Shown piece after piece: positions 1,527 to 49,593 of a stretch of 64,000 bases of DNA (position 1 is the stretch's first letter; each line of letters opens with the position of its first letter). Source of the DNA: Climacium dendroides (lineage: Eukaryota; Streptophyta; Bryopsida; Hypnales; Climaciaceae); NCBI GenBank assembly GCA_950106755.1, contig OX467086.1:29530001-29594000 (forward strand). The letters run 5' to 3'. The position numbers and the translations under genes were made by a program. A model generated the notes under the pieces. It did not search any database. It saw only the letters and a list, made by a program, of their open reading frames with translations, and was not told the origin of the DNA.

Positions 1527-2454
1527 CCCCTATAGTTCCTTGACTATGTTATCACCAAAAACGCTCCAAAACTGTCATTTTTAGTACAAGTACTAGATTT
1601 TTGAAAAAAAAACTTTTTTTGACATGTGTAACCATAGGATCTTGTAGTATTCTGACTTGATAAACGCATGGTAAAAAATTTAGAAATTTCCATCGCATGG
1701 ATTGCAAGATATAAGCATTCAAATTCATTGAAATCGTTTTTTTAGCCCTGCAAAAAACATGGTAGCTGCACTTCACAAGCTCACTTTCCTATGAAAAAAT
1801 GTCCAAAATGGTGGTGCTTTTTTGGATTCTTTTTCCTAGGCAAGTTGGTCACATGCTTGAAAATTTTCAGATCATTTGGAATTGTACAAGTTATAGGGAA
1901 AAAAATAGTAAGTAGACAGCAGTAGAGAATGATTCAAAAATATTAAATTGTTAAGAATTTAATTATTGAATTGAAAAATGCCAATCCCAAAGGTTGAAAT
2001 GTTGTTATAAACAAACTACATATTATGATTTTATTTTTTTCAAAAAATATTGAAAATTGAGTAAGATAAAGGACTTCAAAGTTTATTTTAGAGTAGAGAA
2101 TCCATAATTGCCCGCAAACAAAAACTCCTTATAACTTTTCACTCATTGATCAAAATGGAATGATTCAAAGCTTTCTACGTACATATAACTCTTGGAAATC
2201 AATTTCAAATTTTTGTTTTAAAAAAAAAGTGATTTTTTTAATTTGCTTGGACTGCTCAGACAAGGAAAAAGTAATATATTCAGTCATAACTTTTGACTCA
2301 TATTTCCAAATGTCATGAAATTTGGTGCATTTGAAAGATTTTCCTTGTCCCCACCTTCTATTAGAATTTCAACCTAAAATATGCAAATATCTAGTCACAT
2401 GTACCTGCCCAAATTTTCTATGTTGCCAAAAAACACATATTGGTCCTTTAGGGA
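1527..2454. mobile_element. TTAA-flanked TIR transposon, full length (928 bp)
   Basis: The element is bounded by TTAA at 1523-1526 and 2455-2458. Its ends are CCCCTATAGTTCCTTGAC on the left and the complement of TCCCTAAAGGACCAA on the right. The interior is about 75% AT, has no long open frame, and is closely matched by the copies at 28953-29867 and 33488-34305. TTAA target duplication with ends starting CCC/TCC is the known signature of piggyBac-type transposons. No transposase is encoded, so this is a non-autonomous member. Confidence 0.75.
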
Positions 2455-2693
2455 TTAAGGGTTAAAGGAGGTGGTCCTCCATGACCAAGGTAGTCACCAA
2501 AATGCTTCAATTATTAAACCAATAAGTACATTATTTGTTTCAACAAGGAACAATCAAGTGGCATTTGTTGACCACTTTTCAACCTCAACATCTTTCAAGG
2601 ATTAACCATGCTTGGAAGGTTCTTTTGCTCCCTAGAAAATAGGAGCCTCAGCATTACAACTTTCCAACTAACAAATGATTATTTGTAGATTAA

Positions 2694-4229
2694 TTCCTAG
2701 AGGACCATTGACCCCTCAAGGGACAAATTGGATTTCTACTAGGAAGTGCCTATGGTCTCAATTTTGTCATGATATCTTGAAACTTTTCATGAAGATAGAA
2801 AAGTTGGATAGCTTTGTGAGAATATAATATTTTTTTCAATTGGTACCTAGGAACAAAAGTCATGTCTAAATAAGCTCAAAATAGGAAAAACCATGTAGAA
2901 AAAAAATCACAAAAATTTGAATTTTTAAGTCTTTTCTCCCATAGATTATATTTTTGTCTATATAAAAAGCTTTGATTTATTTCATTTGGATAAGTCATAT
3001 GAAACTTATGGACAATCTTGTTTTTTGGGCAATCATAGCAACATTTTGAGAAAATAATACTTTGGATTTGTTTTTGAATTCAAGTTTTATCATTTTTCAA
3101 AAAAGAAAGTTCCACATGGTTTAGTTTTCTTAATAGAAAAATCTCATTTTGGAGATTAGGATGCTTCAATTTCATCTTAGAGGTATTAATCATTTAAATT
3201 TTCTTTCAGTCTTGTACCTACTTCTACTTAACAATTTTTTTAGGAATGAAAATTAAGGTTTCTTTTTAAAAAAAAAATTGAACTCTCAACTCAATTCCCC
3301 ACCATAAAGATTTAACCCCTAAATGCCCAAGGCCTATTTTGACCTTCTTGGAATTTGCTCTAAATTGAACAAAAAGTCAACCTTTTGAAAAGTTATATCA
3401 ATTTTTTTAAAATTTTAACCGTACAAATTCAAAGTAGACATACTAGAGAGCACATAGAAAAAGAAAAACACAACAATGTCATTTATGAATTGAATGATTA
3501 TAATGTATGATCATCAAAATGTCAAATCTAAAAAATTGATCACCAAAAAAATTTAAGGTTAAAGGGCCTAACATACATAACCCCAATCAATTTATGGCTT
3601 CTTAAAATCTACTCTATAATTTTTTTTAAAGAATTTATAATGTGATTTTTTCTCCAATATCTAGTGTATTTGAGGCTCATTTCCAAGAGCCTTCAACACT
3701 AAGTTACTATGGAAAGTCAAGATTACAATAGACACCCTTGCACAAAATCTTGAATAGAAAAGGCATAATCGTTCATTTTCAAAATCAGATTTTTGATGCT
3801 AAAACTAGACTTTGAAAAGGATTTGTCAAAATTATAAGCTATTAAAAAAAGTAACTTAGTTGGGTATTATTAAACTTCAAAGCATTGTTGACACAAAAAT
3901 TTGGTGCCTCAAGCATTTAGGGGTTAAACCTCAAAACTTTGTAGTACAAAAAATTTGAGTTTAGAAGGTTCAAAGACAATTAATCTAGTCACGCAAGGTC
4001 CAATTTTTTTTTGTTTTCTTCACTTTAAATACAAATATTTTGCAATCTGTGCAGTAAAAATTTCTGAAATTTATTCCGCATATTCTTGTACCATGTAGGT
4101 GTAAGAAGCTACAATTAAATGTAAAAAGAAAACAATTTTTAAGGTTTCATACTCTTTGCAATAGAAATGGCAGTTTTGAGTGTGTTTTTTGGTATAAAAA
4201 AAAGAAAAAAGGTCTTGGTCTATTAGGGG
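2694..4229. mobile_element. TTAA-flanked TIR transposon interrupted by a second one
   Basis: TTAA lies at 2690-2693 and 4230-4233. The left end reads TTCCTAGAGGACCATTGAC and the right end reads GGTCTTGGTCTATTAGGGG. The element belongs to the same subfamily as 34356-35271. It is 1536 bp long only because a 608-bp element and its TTAA duplication (3316-3927) sit inside it. Without them it is 924 bp, matching the ~916-928 bp of the full-length copies. No coding capacity. Confidence 0.7.
3316..3923. mobile_element. Nested TTAA-flanked element (608 bp) with a readable empty site
   Basis: TTAA is present at 3312-3315 and 3924-3927. The ends are CCCCTAAATGCCCAAGGCC and, on the right, the complement of CCCCTAAATGCTTGAGGCA. 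The related copy at 34356-35271 has the uninterrupted site AAAGATTTAAGCTTCAAAAC (about 34966-34985), with one TTAA where this copy has the insert plus two. This is direct evidence of a transposition that duplicated TTAA. Confidence 0.8.
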
Positions 4230-4242
4230 TTAAACTAATTAA

Positions 4243-4790
4243 CCCCTAAATGGCCAAGTTGAATTTTGGGGGCAACATAGTGATTTTGGGCAACTCACTA
4301 CAAATGAAGTTTTCATTTTTGTTCTTTGAAATTTTCATACAACATGGAGAAGAGTTTTTTCTTTTAAGGTCCAACAATTTTCATAACTTTTGACCGCATG
4401 GTTAAAAAGTTATTGTATGATATGTAGTTATTTTCTCGGTCTAGTAGTCTAGGTAGATCAAACATAATCACTTTTTTTCAGAAGAAAAAATTTGAAATTA
4501 ATTTTCTAGATTTTTAATATACATGAAAAAACTTTGAATAATTCCATTTTGATTAATGAGATGAAAGTTACGAGGAGTTTTAGTTTGTGGGTAGTTATGG
4601 ATTCTATACTCTTGCAATTTACATGGTGGAAATTTTTGAAATTTTTTCCACATCTTCTCAAACTAGTGTATTACAAGATCCTATGGTTATGTGTCCAAAA
4701 ATGGTTTTTTTCCCTAAATTTTTATACTTAGACTAGAAATGGTATTTTTAAAGCGTTTTTGGTGAAAACATAGTCGAGGAATTTTAGGGG
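4243..4790 (-). mobile_element. TTAA-flanked element, short copy (548 bp), inverted
   Basis: TTAA lies at 4239-4242 and 4791-4794. The left end is CCCCTAAATGGCCAAG and the right end is the complement of CCCCTAAAATTCCTCG. The last ~250 bp are the reverse complement of the first part of the 1527-2454 copy, so this is an internally deleted member in the opposite orientation. It begins only 9 bp after the 2694-4229 element ends. Confidence 0.7.
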
Positions 4791-4794
4791 TTAA

Positions 4795-14800: not shown

Positions 14801-15149
14801 GGGGTACGTAGCCGTGGGTGGTTGTGCTCTATTAAGGCAAGATTGCTTGATAGTCTTGATGGAGTTCATTTCACAATAGGTGGCACTCTCTCAATGGATG
14901 AGAAGAGGCACATTCTTTTGCACAACGTAAAGCTCAAAGCTTGCCATGTTATTTCTCAAAATGAGGCTTTACTTTTTCACATTACCTAGTCCAAAATGCT
15001 AGGATAGGTTCTCCTTTTGGTGTGTGACAATCCAATTGAGTGGATTATGCTTACTATATAATGTACCACCACTATACATTTCAAAATTTAGTAATGTGGC
15101 ACAATCTAAAGATGGACTATTCTTCTCGTTCTATTGTGCTCAATTAATG
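14801..15149. other. Spacer with no recognisable feature
   Basis: The stretch begins at GGGTACGTAGCC and is slightly less AT-rich than its left neighbour. No coherent frame, repeat or motif was recognised. Confidence 0.3.
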
Positions 15150-15960
15150 TGACCCTTTCCAAGTCTCCAATTGTAACATGGAAGGGGCCAACTAATCAAC
15201 TTTGTTGTCATTGACATGCCACTCTTCATTGTTCTATTAATTCGTCCCCTTTCCAAATCTCCAATTGTGGCGTAGGAGGGGTCACTAGGGGAGGGGGTTA
15301 ATTGATCAATCTTTTGTTGTTGTCATTGACATGTCACTCTCGATTGTTCTATTGCTTTGTCCCTTTCCAAATCTCCGATTGTGGCATGGCAGGGGCCAAT
15401 TGATCAATTGATCTTTTGTTGTTGTCATCGACATGCCACAATTCACATTGTTCTATTACTTTGTCCCTTTCCAAGTCTCCGATTGTGGTATGGGAGGGGC
15501 CAAATGATTGATTGATCTTTCGTTCTTGTCATCGACATGCCACTCTCGATTATTCTATTGTTTTGCCCCTTGCTTTCCAAGCCTCCGATTGTGGCATGAG
15601 AGGTGTCAACTAATCGATTGATCTTTTGTTGTTTGTCATTGACATGCCGCAATTCACATTGTTCTATTGCTTTGCCCCTTGCTTTCCAAGCCTCCGATTG
15701 TGGCATGAGAGGTGTCAACTAATCGATTGATCTTTTGTTGTTTGTCATTGACATGCCGCAATTCACATTGTTCCATTGCTTTGCCCCTTGCTTTCCAAGT
15801 CTCTGTTTGTGACATGGGAGGGGCCAAATGATTGATTGATCTTTTGTTGTTTGTCATCGGGATGCCGCAACTCACATTGTTCTATCGCTTTGCCCCTTGC
15901 TTTCCAAGCCTCCCCTTGTGACGTGGGCTGGGCCAACTGATTGATCTGCTTGTCATCATC
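15150..15960. repeat. Tandem satellite, ~94-113-bp units, about eight copies
   Basis: Each unit carries TTTCCAAGCCTCCGATTGTGG, then a GATTGATCTTTTGTTGT block, then CATTGACATGCC. TTTCCAA starts recur at about 15156, 15250, 15363, 15467, 15573, 15682, 15791 and 15900. The last spacings are exactly 109 bp, and the units starting at 15573 and 15682 differ by one base, so they duplicated recently. Minus-strand frames through the array repeat a peptide pattern, but this follows from the DNA repeat and is not taken as a gene. Confidence 0.85.
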
Positions 15961-17892: not shown

Positions 17893-19581
17893 CTAGCAAT
17901 CGTGGTGCCATAACTCGATCACGTCCCCAACAAGATCATCAGCGAAGTCCAAGGAACTCTGAATGCATCCTGCTGAAGGGAACGGCATGTCAGGCACCAG
18001 GTTGAAGCCAGGAGTAAACACACCGGAAAGATAATCGAAAGACGGTTCTGGCAAGGACCCAGGATTGGTGAAAGGGTCTAGATTGGTGAAAGGGTCACCA
18101 GCATCTGTGGCACTTGCTACTTCCTGTTGTGCAGACTCTTCCGCAACTTCATTTTCTTCATGAGCAGGGTCAATAACACCAGAGCTCAAAGGACTCTCTT
18201 GGTTAGAGCTCGGAAAGTTGTCGCAGTTGGTGTCACGGTGGGTGTCGCGGTTGGTGTCGCGGTTGGCAGTTCTAGCACCGAGCACTACTTGTTGCACAAT
18301 AGCATCTGGCAATGGAATTGTAACAGACGGCCGAGCAACGTCGACGGATTGCTTCGCCCTCTGTGCATCCAACACCTTTCTGATAACCTGCTTCGCACGT
18401 TTCTTGAGCTCAACGTTGAATGCTTTGTCTTTTACGTCCTTGCTGACCGAGGAGAAAGGGCGATTCAAAGGTCCCAATTCGCTAAACAGAGCAGGCGAGT
18501 CCTTGAAGTAGAATCCACCCTTGTCTTGACCAGCATAAAACCTTGCACAGTCACAGGCTCGCCGACCCTCATCCACCGTAGCATAAGTGCCCATCCAGAG
18601 CTTCCATTTGAAACGTGGCGGCCTGTACTCCACCACGAATTTTCCCAGATTCTCTCTGAAGCGTACACCGCCCTCTTTGCAACCTATGTCGTCATTATCA
18701 TGATCCAGTTTCTCAGCAGATTCTTTCACATCCCTGCACATCCAGAACATGAAACTCAATGCCGAGCTCTCCACACACAACACACCAATATGTTCAACTT
18801 AATCATGTACTTACATCCTAGAATCAATACACTCAGGAAAAACTATGTGAGATACATCCTAGAACATGCACAACAGTTGGGCTAAGTCGGTGCAATGCAG
18901 GAATACAGTAGAAAACATCCCAAAATGTTCCTTAAAACATGGAATACATCCCATAGTCGATGTGCACAACACAACTGATATATCTACGTGCATGACATAT
19001 TGAACAACGTGCGACAAGAGATATTGAACGATGGTAAAGGCCATATGGAACAAAACTGGGTACCTGCAAAGGTCACTGGTGTCATGAGGTTTCGGAGTTG
19101 CAGCTTCGGTGCTGGGGGCTGCAATCACTAAAGGAGCACTCGCAGGTACAGATGCAGCTGGCTTGATTGGACCTACAAACTTCGGAGGAGACTGAATTCC
19201 AAAGCTAGAAGGAGCTGGCATGCTCAGCTTGGGAGCAGGAGACGGCATGCCAAAGCTGGAGGAGGATGCTGGCCTCGTCGGAGTTGGAATGAGGAAGTTG
19301 TTGTCCCTGTCGTTGGTAAACTGTCTCGAGGAGGCTGGAATAGTAGGGCGTTTGGACTGCGGCTTGAGGGGACCTGCTTTGTGATCGTCCGTGCCAAATG
19401 CTTGCATAAAGTCATCAAAGGCGTCAAACATCCCCAGGCGCTTTCCAAGCACACTCGAGTCCACTGACATCGGTCCTCCATGGTCAATACAGTCTGTACT
19501 GCCAATCCTCAAGCACTCCCCACAGTACTTGTCCAGGCGCTGACACACTTGGTTGTTGCGGTTCTTCAGTAACTCAGGCAT
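17893..19581 (-). CDS. AP2/ERF-domain transcription factor, divergent (452 aa, two exons)
   Basis: Probable nuclear DNA-binding regulator. The coding join is 19581-19064 and 18733-17893; the 330-bp intron (19063-18734) has donor CAG|GTACCC and acceptor GTGCAG|G, and splits an Arg codon (phase 2). Start is the first ATG of the exon (CACCATGCC). Residues 13-34 hold a Cys cluster (C20-x2-C23-x7-C31-x2-H34). Residues 75-165 are Pro/Ser-rich with SFG repeats. An AP2 domain follows at about 194-253, recognised by GKFVVEYRPPRFKWKLWMGTY and a C-terminal FYF; the usual RGVR is GGVR, the usual Trp after it is missing, WLG is WMG and RAYD is RACD. The rest is acidic, with a duplicated DPFTN, a 4-residue NRDT repeat and a hydrophobic/acidic end (DDLVGDVIELW). 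AP2/ERF proteins bind GC-rich cis-elements, but the altered contact residues make its binding uncertain. It shares intron position and layout with the gene at 47707-49593. Confidence 0.85.
18219..18266 (-). repeat. 12-bp coding minisatellite inside the first AP2 gene
   Basis: Imperfect 12-bp units (plus strand GTTGGTGTCGCG type) encode successive Asn/His-Arg-Asp-Thr tetrapeptides between the AP2 domain and the acidic tail. Being a multiple of three, copy changes would keep the frame. Confidence 0.75.
18734..19063 (-). other. Intron of the first AP2 gene (330 bp, phase 2)
   Basis: GT-AG intron lying between the Pro/Ser-rich exon 1 and the AP2 exon. Short imperfect repeats (ACATCCTAGA, ACATCCCA) lie inside it. 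Reading through without splicing gives an in-frame Met start (18783), but that would add a hydrophobic leader with no family support. Confidence 0.85.
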
Positions 19582-28952: not shown

Positions 28953-29867
28953 CCCCTAAAGTTTCTTCGCTATGTTTTTACCAAAAATGCTCTAAAACTG
29001 CCATTTCTAGTATAAGTACCAAATTTTTGAAAAAATAACTTTTTTGTCACATGTCACTGTAGGATCTTGTAGTATACTGACTTAAAAACACATGGTAAAA
29101 ATTTCAGAAATTTCCACCACGTGGATTACAAGATATAGGCGTTCAAATTCATTGAAATCATTTTTTTAGCGCTGCAAAAAAACAGGGCAGCTGCACTTCA
29201 CAAGCTCACTTTCCTATGAAAAAATGTCCAAAACGGTGGTTATTCTTTAGATTCTTTTTCCTAGACAAGTTGGTCACATGCTTGAAAATTTTTATATCAT
29301 TTGGAATTGTACAACATATAGGAAAAAAATAGTAAGTACACAGTAGTAGAGAATGATTCAGAATATTAATTTGTGAAGAAATTAAGTATGGAATTAAAAA
29401 TTGACAATTTCAATGGTTGAAATGTTGTTATAAACAATCTACATCCTATGATTTTATTTTTTTCAAAAAATATTGAAAATTGAGTAAGATAAAGAACTTC
29501 AAAGTTTATTTTAGAGTAGAGAATCCACAAACAAAAACTCCTCATAACTTTCATCTCATGATCAAAATGGAATAATTCAAAGCTTTCCATGTACACATAA
29601 CTCTAGAAAACCAGTTTCAAATTTTTGTTTTAAAAAAAAGTGATTTTAAAAATTCTGCCCGTACTGCCTGGCCGGTTTAAAAAGTAACATATTTGACCAT
29701 AACTTTTGACTTGTATTTCCAAATGTCATGAAATTTGGTGCATTTGAAAAATATTCCTCGCCCCCACCTTTTATTAAAACTTCAGCCCAAAATATGAAAA
29801 TCTCTAGTGACATGTACCTGTCCAAAATTTCTATACAGCCAAAAAACACATGCTGGTCCTTTAGGAG
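28953..29867. mobile_element. TTAA-flanked TIR transposon, full length (915 bp)
   Basis: TTAA lies at 28949-28952 and 29868-29871, with ends CCCCTAAAGTTTCTTCGC and the complement of TCCTAAAGGACCAGC. It aligns along its whole length with 1527-2454 and, from about 29066 on, with 33488-34305. Non-coding. Confidence 0.75.
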
Positions 29868-32136: not shown

Positions 32137-32885
32137 TAAGGTGGAACTACCCGTAACCACTCAAATCTGCTATCTAGGTACTTTGGAGAAGCTATTTGTC
32201 ATCTCTCATAATTTTCAGAGATTGAATTGTTTGAGAGAAGTCAATTGCGAAAAGATTGAAGACATTCCAACAAGAATTGAATTTTTTGTGATTTTTCAAA
32301 GCTGAAATGTAAAACTGTGAGTAGACCCTTGTTGAAGCATGACCAGACCATTGTTGAAGCGTGGGCTGATGTGTCCACTCCCCCAAGTGCATTGCCATTG
32401 TGATAAGAGATTAAGGCAGAACTTCCCAATACCACCAATTATCCAATTCCTCCACCTACAGGTTCCTCCCATTTCCGTCACTTGACATATCTATTACCAC
32501 AATCTTATTAATTCTTCATCATGATGGCAATGTACTTGGTGAGCAGACACATCAGCCACCGCTTCAACAATGGTCCGGTCATGCTTCAACAAGGGTGTAC
32601 TCACAGTTGAACATTTCAGTTTTGAAAAATCACAAAAAATTCAATTTTTGTCGGAATGTCTTCATTCTTTTTGCAATTGACTTCTCTCCAACAACTCAAT
32701 CTCTGAAAACCATGAGAGCTGACAAATAGCTTCTCCAAAGTACCGAGATAGCAAATCTGTGTGGTAATGGATAGTTCTACCTTAATAAGATTGTGGTGAT
32801 AGATGAGTCAGTGACAGAAGTGGGAGGAATTTGTAGGTGGCAGAATTGGATAGATGGTGGTATTGGGCAGTTCCACCTTAGTCAC
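32137..32885. repeat. Large compound inverted repeat
   Basis: The arm 32139-32398 pairs with 32530-32790 at high identity, with shared blocks such as TTTGGAGAAGCTATTTGTCA and CACCCTTGTTGAAGCATGAC in the reverse-complement arm. In addition, about 95 bp at 32405-32505 are inverted at 32785-32885 (blocks CCCAATACCACC and ACCACAATCTTATTAA). The simplest reading is an element of about 480 bp with ~95-bp inverted ends (32405-32885) beside an inverted copy of its core. No protein is encoded. Confidence 0.75.
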
Positions 32886-34355: not shown

Positions 34356-35271
34356 TCCCTAAAGGATCATTGTTCCTTTGGAAGACAAATGGGATTTTGA
34401 GTAGATACCTACGGTCTCAATTTTTGTCATGATTTTTGAAGATAGAAAAACTAATTATTTTGGTGGGAATATAATTTTTTTTCAATTGCTGCCAAGGAAC
34501 AAAAGTTATATCTAGATGAACTGAAAATAAAGGAGATTGGACAACCAAAAAATTTCAGAAATTCAAATTTTTGAATTTCGAATTTTTTTCTCATAGATTA
34601 TATTTTTGTCTATATGAAAAGCTTTGATTTATTTCATTTGGATAAGTGATGTGAAAGTTATGGACAATCTTGTTTTTTTGCAATCTAACCATCTTCTTGA
34701 AAAAACTTGTGAAAAAACAACTTATAGGATTCATTTTTGAATGCAATTTTTACAATTTAAAAAAGAATCCTCGTGGTTTAGTTTGATTTCTAGAATAATC
34801 TCACCATTGGAATTCGTACATTTTAATTCCATGTTAGAGATATTAATAATTTAGATTGTCCATCTATCTAGTACCTATTTCTACTGAACAATTTTTTTAA
34901 AAAGGAAAATTAAATTTTTAAAAAAGAAAAATTATCCTACACTCTCAACTCAATTCTCCACCATAAAGATTTAAGCTTCAAAACTATGTAGTGAAAAAAA
35001 TTTAAGTTACAAAGGTTCAAAGTCAAATAACCTAATTCCATAATGTGTTGAAAAAAACTTGTTTTTTTTACTTTAAATACAAATATCTTGCAATCTGTGC
35101 AGTCAAGATTTCTGAAATTTATTCTATACATTCTTATACTAATTAGGTGTAAGATCATAAAATTAGATGCGCAGAAAAAAAAACAATTTCCAAATTCTTT
35201 TATTCTTTGCAATAAAAATGGTAGTTCTGAGTGTTTTTTGGCAAAATATAAAGGCCTTGGTCCTCTAGGGG
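34356..35271. mobile_element. TTAA-type transposon, full length (916 bp), carrying the empty site
   Basis: The left side has TTAA (34352-34355) and end TCCCTAAAGGATCATTG. The right end is the complement of CCCCTAGAGGACCAAGGCC, followed by TTAT (a changed TTAA). Same subfamily as 2694-4229. At 34971-34974 it keeps the single TTAA that corresponds to the insertion site of the nested 3316-3923 element. Confidence 0.75.
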
Positions 35272-47706: not shown

Positions 47707-49593
47707 TCAAGGTAGCGAGTGTGTGAAGTCCAAGCTGACGGGCTCGTAGTCGAGCTCCTCCTTCGAGTCATACGCCATCATCGCCGTCGTGAAATCAAAC
47801 ATCTGTTGCAGGTGGAACCACTCATCATCATCTGCAGGCATGGGCAAGCCCGTCTCCTCGGACGTGGAGTCTTCGCTCGACGACGTTGCGCTCCCGGCTG
47901 CGCTGCTGACAGGCATGTTGGAAGAATCTCCGCCGCTGTTGTCCGTCCGCGTGTCGGCGGTTAGGTTGGGTTCCGTAGGGAGAACTGGGAAGCTCCTCAC
48001 CTTGACCGCCGCCTCCCGGGCCTCCTGCTGCACGAAGGTCTTGATTTGGTCGGAATGGTCGACATTGTCGAGGCGGAGTGTGGCCGGGAGCGGAGGGAAT
48101 GTACCCTCGAGCGCCGGGAAGTTGTAGCGAGTCTTCTTGTTGGTGTAGAAGATCCCCGCGTCGTAGGCGCCCGCGGCCTCGCGGTCGGAGTTGTAGGTCC
48201 CCAGCCAGATGGTCTTCTTCCATCTGGGGGGCCTAATCTCCACCAGGAAGCCGCGGACGCCTTTGCGCTGGCGGACGCCCCTGAAACCCACTGGGCCCTT
48301 CCGGGAGCCGTTGGGGGGGCGGCCGCGTTGGCCATGGCTGTGGAGGTAAGGGGAGGGGGTGACCACTGTCTGGGGAGAAGTTCTGAAAACGAAACACAGC
48401 AAAAGAAACATGAGCACATATCTATGGGATGAAACTTGCAGTAGTTGAGGAAACGTAGCATGGTTGCTAGTTCTAGGATCCAAGAGAGTGAACCCCAAGG
48501 TGAACCAATCGCGTAGGTAGCCGGTACCAACCGTGAGCGAAGATATATCGATCCGATGTAAAACTTGCAGACTGGATGAAACGAAACATGGTTGCTAGTT
48601 CTATGATCCCATGTTGAACCAACATACTCTGATCGAACCCCATGTTAAACAAACTTCCTAGGTGGTGAACAAGCATGAGTGAACATCGATGCGATGTGAA
48701 ACTCCAGTACTTGATGAAACAAAACATGGCTGCTAATTCTCTGATCGAGGAGCGTGAACCCCAAGTTGAACTAACTTCCTAGTTGGTTGAAACAAGCTTC
48801 CTGGTGAACTAACTTTCTAGTTAGTTGAACGACCCCCTGGTTCAACCAACTACAAGGTTTACACAACACTCAAGGAGGGGCAGTGATATTCGCAAGGAGC
48901 TGAGCACAACTTGAAGCTAACACAACGAGTTGCGGGCATTATCGAGCCATAGCCACGACGCATTGCAGTTGAAGTTTCGGGTGATGACCACTACTAGGAA
49001 TTTAAACTCGTTCAATTGTGAGGATTGCCACTGACATCGAAGAGAGGATAATGAGTAACAAAGCGGTGATATAATGTGAGAGCTGTTGAGCACAACAGAC
49101 TTTACCACGGAGGAAATACAACAGAGTTTACCGTCTCAATTGAATCATTACCACCTCCTGAACGGAAAACTACCAGATGGTATACTCTTAAAACTCCCTT
49201 GCGGAGTAGTGATGTAGACGTAAGAGTTCTGTGACTGAGAGCGTACCTGGCTTGGTGCTCTCGTTCTGCGGACGAGGACGACCGGCGTGTGACTCTCGTG
49301 AGTGACGACGAGCCGAATGGGATGGCGACCGCGGTTGCAGCAGGAGCTGCAGGCGTGGGCGCCGGTGCTAGTGGGATTTCAGCCGCGGGTTTCCAGCGGT
49401 TCAGGACCTGGAGAGGCGGCTTCTGGTCGGGCTTCACATCCTGGACATCATGGCAGGACGAGCAGTTGTGGTAAGTCTCCGATTCGCTGAAGCCACAGAA
49501 GAAGCAGCTTGAGGTAAATTGTTGCAGGCTGCTCCGTTGCAGGCGCGTGTCGACGCCTTGCAAGTGCCGAGAGTATTCGCCGACCTCCGGCAT
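47707..49593 (-). CDS. AP2/ERF-domain transcription factor (340 aa, two exons)
   Basis: Probable nuclear DNA-binding regulator. The coding join is 49593-49247 and 48382-47707; the 864-bp intron has donor CCAG|GTACGC and acceptor GTTTTCAG|A and splits an Arg codon (phase 2), exactly as in the gene at 17893-19581. Start: first ATG (CACCATGCC). Residues 30-48 carry C30-x2-C33-x10-C44-x2-C47-H48, a zinc-ribbon-like spacing. An Ala/Pro-rich linker and a basic segment (GRPPNGSRKGP) precede the AP2 domain at about 148-206 (FRGVRQRKGVRGFLVEIR, PPRWKKTIWLGTY, then YNFP). RGVR, EIR, WLG and AYD are kept; the Trp usual after RGVRQR is absent and there is one extra residue there, both shared with the first gene. 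The tail is Ser/Thr-rich, then acidic (DDDEW, SKEELDYEP), typical of activation regions. EIRPPxxK AP2 domains form a subclass within the ERF family; the target and pathway cannot be told from sequence. Confidence 0.9.
48383..49246 (-). other. Intron of the second AP2 gene, with three ~130-bp tandem repeats
   Basis: GT-AG intron. Three diverged units lie in tandem, marked by AAACTTGCAG/AAACTCCAG at about 48431, 48560 and 48698. Each is followed by GAAACATGGTTGCTAGTTCT-like and GAACCCCA/GTTGAAC blocks. The intron is 2.6 times the length of the paralogous one, largely because of these units. Confidence 0.8.

What the first reader, a model, noticed from the sequence alone, without database searches (positions are those of the whole stretch)
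2690..4233. Nested TTAA-duplicating transposon with its empty site preserved elsewhere
Element 3316-3923 sits inside element 2694-4229 with TTAA on both sides. The sister copy at 34356-35271 shows the site with a single TTAA (34971-34974). Removing insert plus one TTAA brings the host to 924 bp, the size of the other copies. So TTAA duplication is read directly, not assumed. With CCC-starting ends this fits the piggyBac superfamily, which to my knowledge is not a standard component of plant genomes.
Basis: partly seen in the sequence, partly recalled or inferred. Interest (0 to 1): 0.75.

Follow-up and report, generated by a model that had tools for sequence, protein, structure and literature searches.

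The report
piggyBac transposons in a moss genome
A short piece of mobile DNA sits inside another one in a moss genome, and both look like stripped-down passengers of piggyBac, a cut-and-paste transposon known mostly from animals, whose enzyme genes are also present in this moss, some of them with an unbroken reading frame.

Summary
Element 3316-3923 lies inside element 2694-4229 with TTAA on both sides; the sister copy at 34356-35271 keeps the unfilled site as one TTAA, and removing the insert plus one TTAA leaves a 924-bp host. Genome-wide, 545 of 695 exact inner-element ends carry TTAA. The host looks like a moss.

This genome gives 119 matches to the piggyBac transposase domain PF13843, against 0 of 14 control genomes. 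One 5.9-kb TTAA|CCCC-bounded element encoding this domain matches both ends of the outer element family. So the outer element is a non-autonomous piggyBac derivative by sequence.

The inner element is assigned only by its TTAA duplication and CCCCTAAATG ends; no parent with its subterminal sequence was found. Two 5.36-kb copies on different contigs are 99.8% identical with open transposase frames, so movement was probably recent.

This is a known superfamily in a host group where a review of land-plant transposons does not list it, although plant piggyBac-type MITEs have been named before.

The parts
3316..3923 (+). Inner non-autonomous element (MITE), 608 bp; family consensus 637 bp, TIR CCCCTAAATGCCCRAGGC, no open frame over 63 codons in the consensus
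3312..3315 (.). TTAA target-site duplication, left of inner element
3924..3927 (.). TTAA target-site duplication, right of inner element
2694..4229 (+). Outer non-autonomous element carrying the insert (924 bp without insert and one TTAA); its left end corresponds to the end upstream of the transposase in the C39 piggyBac element
2690..2693 (.). TTAA, left flank of outer element
4230..4233 (.). TTAA, right flank of outer element
34356..35271 (+). Sister copy of the outer element, unfilled; flanked TTAA / TTAT
34971..34974 (.). Empty site: single TTAA where the inner element sits in the outer copy
4243..4790 (+). Third TTAA-flanked element next to the outer one (548 bp; TTAA 4239-4242 and 4791-4794), related to 1527-2454 in reverse; ends weakly similar to the C39 element (z 6.1 and 7.1)
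1527..2454 (+). TTAA-flanked element of a second non-autonomous family; ends similar to the C39 piggyBac element (z 16.0 and 6.5)
28953..29867 (+). Another copy of the 1527-2454 family, TTAA both sides; left end similar to the C39 element (z 14.7), right end not (z 1.4 or less)

Best explanation
Both elements are non-autonomous (MITE-type) passengers of the piggyBac superfamily in a moss. A piggyBac transposase made elsewhere in the genome binds their ends, cuts them out and joins them into TTAA targets, so one TTAA is found on each side. The outer element (about 0.92 kb) shares both ends with a 5.9-kb piggyBac element of this genome and inserted first; the inner element (about 0.61-0.65 kb, several hundred ends genome-wide) later inserted into a TTAA of that copy. 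Shown: nesting, empty site, TTAA duplication, outer ends shared with a transposase-bearing element, catalytic Asp triad in 22 of 31 aligned domains, near-identical transposase-bearing copies on two contigs. Inferred: that these transposases moved these particular copies, and which one moves the inner family.
For: Empty site and TSD. TTAA at 545 of 695 exact inner ends and in the copy table. PF13843: 119 matches in this genome (a few are pieces of one gene; 116 of 667 candidates scored), 0 of 14 controls, whose kinds the answer does not name. The C3 transposase matches solved piggyBat (E 1.1e-36) and 6x67/6x68 (E 1.7e-24). DDD complete in 22 of 31 aligned domains, the C39 element among them. 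Element C39:23812123-23818040 is bounded by TTAA|CCCCTAAAGGACCA on both sides; sister 2-59 matches one end (81%, E 1.5e-10), outer 3-140 the same end (71%, E 2.3e-12), sister 819-916 the other end (70%, E 2.6e-7), each at or within two bases of the tip and in consistent orientation. With the first four bases left out these give z 16.8, 27.6 and 16.1 against shuffles; the same query ends against the C3 and C37 elements give z -1.2 to 1.1. C3 and C35 copies 99.81% over 5,372 bp, each with a 1,055-codon stop-to-stop frame.
Against: No element with the inner element's subterminal sequence was found: its ends score z -0.9 to 1.8 against the three complete elements compared. The 9 convergent exact-end pairs among the first 100 listed of 545 ends span 613-654 bp, none of autonomous size. 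The outer copy's own right end matches C39 only weakly (z 5.5). The C39 transposase has a stop in the domain. The C35 copy has TTAA on one side only. In the loci downstream of transposases, 16 of 40 stretches held no TTAA|CC[CT] site, and several pair boundaries do not fall at TTAA. Four of 31 domains have a changed catalytic residue and five are only partly aligned. No transposition was observed.
Confidence: 0.93

Rival explanations
1. The elements are PIF/Harbinger (Tourist-like) MITEs with a 3-bp TTA or TAA duplication that happens to look like TTAA.
For: Tourist MITEs of plants have TAA/TTA duplications (PMC10004981 passage).
Against: A 3-bp reading makes the two ends asymmetric (ACCCC against CCCC); TTAA is present on 545 of 695 exact ends and is duplicated as four bases in the empty-site alignment; the outer family shares ends with a PF13843 element.
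Confidence: 0.02
2. The inner family is moved by another TTAA-duplicating superfamily (Kolobok or Sola3), while the outer family is piggyBac.
For: TTAA duplication alone does not separate these superfamilies (recalled); inner subterminal sequence matches none of the three complete piggyBac elements compared.
Against: Four piggyBac element ends fixed by pairwise alignment start with CCC, three of them CCCC (C3/C35, L017/L019 and L025/L032; L026/L038 has CCCT); the C37 element (875-codon open frame) has ends CCCCTAAATGACCC, the first 10 bases as in the inner TIR. Kolobok and Sola transposases were not searched for.
Confidence: 0.05
3. The transposases are animal contamination in the assembly.
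For: The protein relatives that bear an organism name are all animal.
Against: All but one of the listed matches lie on contigs of 28-52 Mb that also hold the MITEs (one is on the 2.5-Mb C16); the 30 rows taken from this genome fall in one part of the tree with three unnamed relatives, as several deep lineages; contig C34 carries both piggyBac matches and the window's AP2 gene with its moss relatives.
Confidence: 0.01

Closest known systems
piggyBac superfamily (Trichoplusia ni piggyBac, Myotis piggyBat; PDB 6x67/6x68, 9c0f)
   Same: TTAA target duplication, CCC-starting inverted ends, PF13843 transposase with DDD triad; C-terminal Cys/His positions invariant in seven aligned sequences
   Different: Host is a moss; the complete elements read are 5.4-5.9 kb, and the longest open transposase frames are 875-1,115 codons stop to stop, against 578-594 residue chains in PDB
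piggyBac-like MITEs of animals (e.g. coral MITEs, PMC2872659, search listing only)
   Same: Short, non-coding, TTAA-flanked
   Different: Plant host; several families in one 64-kb window, nested and adjacent
Tourist/PIF-Harbinger MITEs of plants
   Same: Short, abundant, A+T-rich target, plant host
   Different: 3-bp TTA/TAA duplication, not met here; different transposase

Membership tests
piggyBac superfamily (outer element family) | TTAA target-site duplication | tested here: met
   Outer copy TTAA both sides; sister copy TTAA/TTAT. Only these two copies: the genome-wide searches for this family were unanswered
piggyBac superfamily (outer element family) | Shares ends with an element encoding a PF13843 transposase | tested here: met
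   Both ends match C39:23812123-23818040
piggyBac superfamily (inner element family) | TTAA target-site duplication | tested here: met
   Empty site; 545 of 695 exact ends
piggyBac superfamily (inner element family) | CCC-starting terminal inverted repeats | tested here: met
   CCCCTAAATGCCCAAGGC / CCCCTAAATGCCCGAGGC
piggyBac superfamily (inner element family) | Ends shared with a PF13843-encoding element beyond the first bases | tested here: inconclusive
   First 10 terminal bases as in the C37 element; no subterminal similarity to three complete elements. Flanks of only 63 piggyBac loci were read, so a parent may exist
piggyBac superfamily (transposases of this genome) | PF13843 domain with DDD triad | tested here: met
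   119 matches; DDD in 22 of 31 aligned domains
piggyBac superfamily (transposases of this genome) | Seamless excision in an assay | not testable with these tools
   needs an experiment
PIF/Harbinger (Tourist) | 3-bp TTA/TAA duplication | tested here: not met
Kolobok / Sola3 | Own transposase with these ends | not tested
   no search made; the TTAA duplication of these superfamilies is recalled

The most novel reading that the evidence does not exclude
Mosses carry their own long-resident, diversified and recently active piggyBac lineage, with autonomous elements still able to move and several MITE families riding on it. It would be the first fully documented native piggyBac system of land plants.
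Probability: 0.45. Interest if true: 0.65.

Novelty: new member of a known kind. Interest (0 to 1): 0.5.

Why it matters
piggyBac is used in plants as an imported moth element for footprint-free excision, and the same review says that DNA transposons found in plants leave a footprint (PMC10905368, passages); a Physcomitrella paper notes that piggyBac had yet to be tested in that moss (PMC5505980, passage). A native, recently mobile piggyBac in a moss would offer plant-adapted transposases and shows that the usual list of plant TIR superfamilies is incomplete for bryophytes.

Tried and rejected
PIF/Harbinger 3-bp duplication: rejected. Search for the inner family's autonomous parent: ends near transposases (24 of the 40 downstream stretches held a TTAA|CC[CT] site, some of which may be chance or MITE ends), BLAST of the MITE families against the transposase loci, spacing of exact ends, and a comparison by eye, not by script, of the first 100 listed ends (C1 and part of C2) with the places (nearest about 32 kb apart). 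No parent found. Other matches were taken as neighbouring MITE copies and not as links: inner-family right part in L082, whose end points away from the L034 transposase; outer-family stretches in L078 and L082; second-family stretches in L097, L112 and others. They were not followed further. The 7-kb pair on C40 (99.94%) has its right boundary at TTAA but its left boundary lies beyond what was fetched, so it is not used as proof of transposition. In one search two pairs (L025/L032, L026/L038) break at TTAA|CCC; breaks of the other pairs are not at TTAA and were read as internal differences without further test. Rfam scan of the window: no match at gathering scores. In some searches the copy at 28953 was given one base too long (29868 for 29867). 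The z-scores use block-of-three shuffles and are rough; unrelated comparisons in that table reach z 3.7. Literature: 10 searches of the open-licence library; among the papers listed none is titled or abstracted as describing native autonomous piggyBac elements in a moss, but several searches matched more papers than were listed and most subscription papers are not held.

Full report
What was checked. The window is bases 29,530,001-29,594,000 of contig C34 in a 412.6-Mb, 123-contig genome. Two frames in the window match the AP2 domain below Pfam's cut-off. One of them was searched: 63 protein hits, of which the three that bear an organism name are from mosses, Ceratodon purpureus (62% over 61% of the query) and two Sphagnum species. 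The host is therefore taken to be a moss; the species was not identified.

The nested insertion. Element 3316-3923 lies in element 2694-4229, each with TTAA on both sides. The sister copy 34356-35271 aligns to the host in two blocks which overlap by exactly TTAA at 34971-34974. Splicing out the insert and one TTAA leaves 924 bp and gives the better alignment, 721 against 712. The sister has TTAA on the left and TTAT on the right, so one of its flanks has probably changed.

The inner family. A genome search listed 44 matches; 40 of 4,569 first-look candidates were scored. 39 stretches were fetched. They gave 43 alignment rows, of which 37 near-complete ones were kept: TTAA is on the left in 26 and on the right in 29; of 32 with both ends recognisable 20 have it on both sides and 30 on at least one. 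An aligned set of 33 sequences, window copy included, gives a 637-bp consensus with TIRs CCCCTAAATGCCCAAGGC / CCCCTAAATGCCCGAGGC, no frame above 63 codons, and median divergence 7.2% from consensus (range 5.5-16.3%). These are the copies scoring best against the window copy, so the family as a whole may be older. Genome-wide the exact 18-base end occurs 695 times, 545 of them preceded by TTAA; reversed control patterns gave 0 in both. Among the first 100 listed places, 9 convergent pairs span 613-654 bp including both TTAA.

Transposases. PF13843 (piggyBac) gave 119 matches in this genome, some of them pieces of one gene, and none in 14 control genomes. The protein from contig C3 matches piggyBat 9c0f at E 1.1e-36 and piggyBac 6x67/6x68 at 1.7e-24. 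In an alignment of 31 domains the DDD triad is complete in 22; L036, L016, L025 and L015 have a changed second residue, and L029, L026, L022, L020 and L038 are not fully covered. A tree of 49 rows places all 30 rows of this genome in one part together with three unnamed relatives, P0001, P0002 and P0004 (support 95/91), as several deep lineages; long branches and a root set only for drawing limit this. In two protein searches the relatives that bear an organism name are all animal, and the closest relatives are on unnamed short contigs.

Autonomous-type elements. The C3 element is 5,363 bp, TTAA|CCCCAGAACG...CGTTCTGGGG|TTAA, with a 1,055-codon stop-to-stop frame; the C35 copy is 99.81% identical over 5,372 bp and has the same frame. 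The C35 copy has TTAA on one side only. Two further loci, L108 and L111, carry the same end at about 97% over some 890 bp. The boundaries of the pairs L025/L032 and L026/L038 also fall at TTAA|CCC, on the one side read. The C37 element is 5,793 bp, TTAA|CCCCTAAATGACCC at both ends, with an 875-codon open frame. Of 40 stretches downstream of transposases, 24 held a TTAA|CC[CT] site and 16 did not.

The link. The C39 element (C39:23812123-23818040, 5,918 bp) contains the PF13843 match C39:23813931-23815073 (one TGA) and ends in TTAA|CCCCTAAAGGACCA on both sides. Sister 2-59 and outer 3-140 match the end upstream of the transposase; sister 819-916 matches the downstream end. With the first four bases left out these reach z 16.8, 27.6 and 16.1 against shuffles; the outer copy's right end reaches only 5.5; the same query ends against the C3 and C37 elements give z between -1.2 and 1.1. 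The 1527-2454 element (z 16.0 and 6.5), its 28953 copy (14.7 for the left end, 1.4 or less for the right) and the 4243-4790 element (7.1 and 6.1) also resemble the C39 ends, in a table where unrelated comparisons reach 3.7. The inner family does not (z -0.9 to 1.8). Its link is TTAA, CCCC and ten terminal bases in common with the C37 element.

Mechanism. By established knowledge of piggyBac (recalled), the transposase cuts at the TTAA-CCC junction, excises the element and joins it into another TTAA. The nested pair records two such events in order: outer, then inner. That the present transposases did this is inferred.

Literature. A land-plant review places plant TIR elements in six superfamilies and does not contain the word piggyBac (PMC9033089, passages). 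A MITE review names PiggyBac among seven angiosperm MITE superfamilies (PMC10004981, passage). A fern repeat table lists 1,230 PiggyBac pieces, 122 kb (PMC6890710, passage). Two animal papers say in general that piggyBac occurs in plants (PMC10140906 and PMC10813416, passages). So the news lies in the direct evidence and in transposase-bearing copies in a moss, not in the first use of the name for plants.

Noticed in passing
window 4230-4242: Two TTAA-flanked elements sit 13 bp apart (outer element and 4243-4790), and locus L066 has two inner-family copies with TTAA-joined ends: clustered insertion.
   Followed up: partly
L017/L019 (C40:22.47 Mb and 22.40 Mb): A piggyBac-bearing stretch 99.94% identical over 7,063 bp at two places about 76 kb apart, right boundary at TTAA; left boundary not read.
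   Followed up: partly
window 15135-15945: Repeats spaced about 104-109 bp apart.
   Followed up: no
window 32137-32784: Large inverted repeat, 247-bp arms 89% complementary, 154 bp apart.
   Followed up: no
window 47710-48594 and 17896-18798, minus strand: Two open frames with weak AP2/ERF domains (below Pfam cut-off); the first has its best named relative in the moss Ceratodon.
   Followed up: partly
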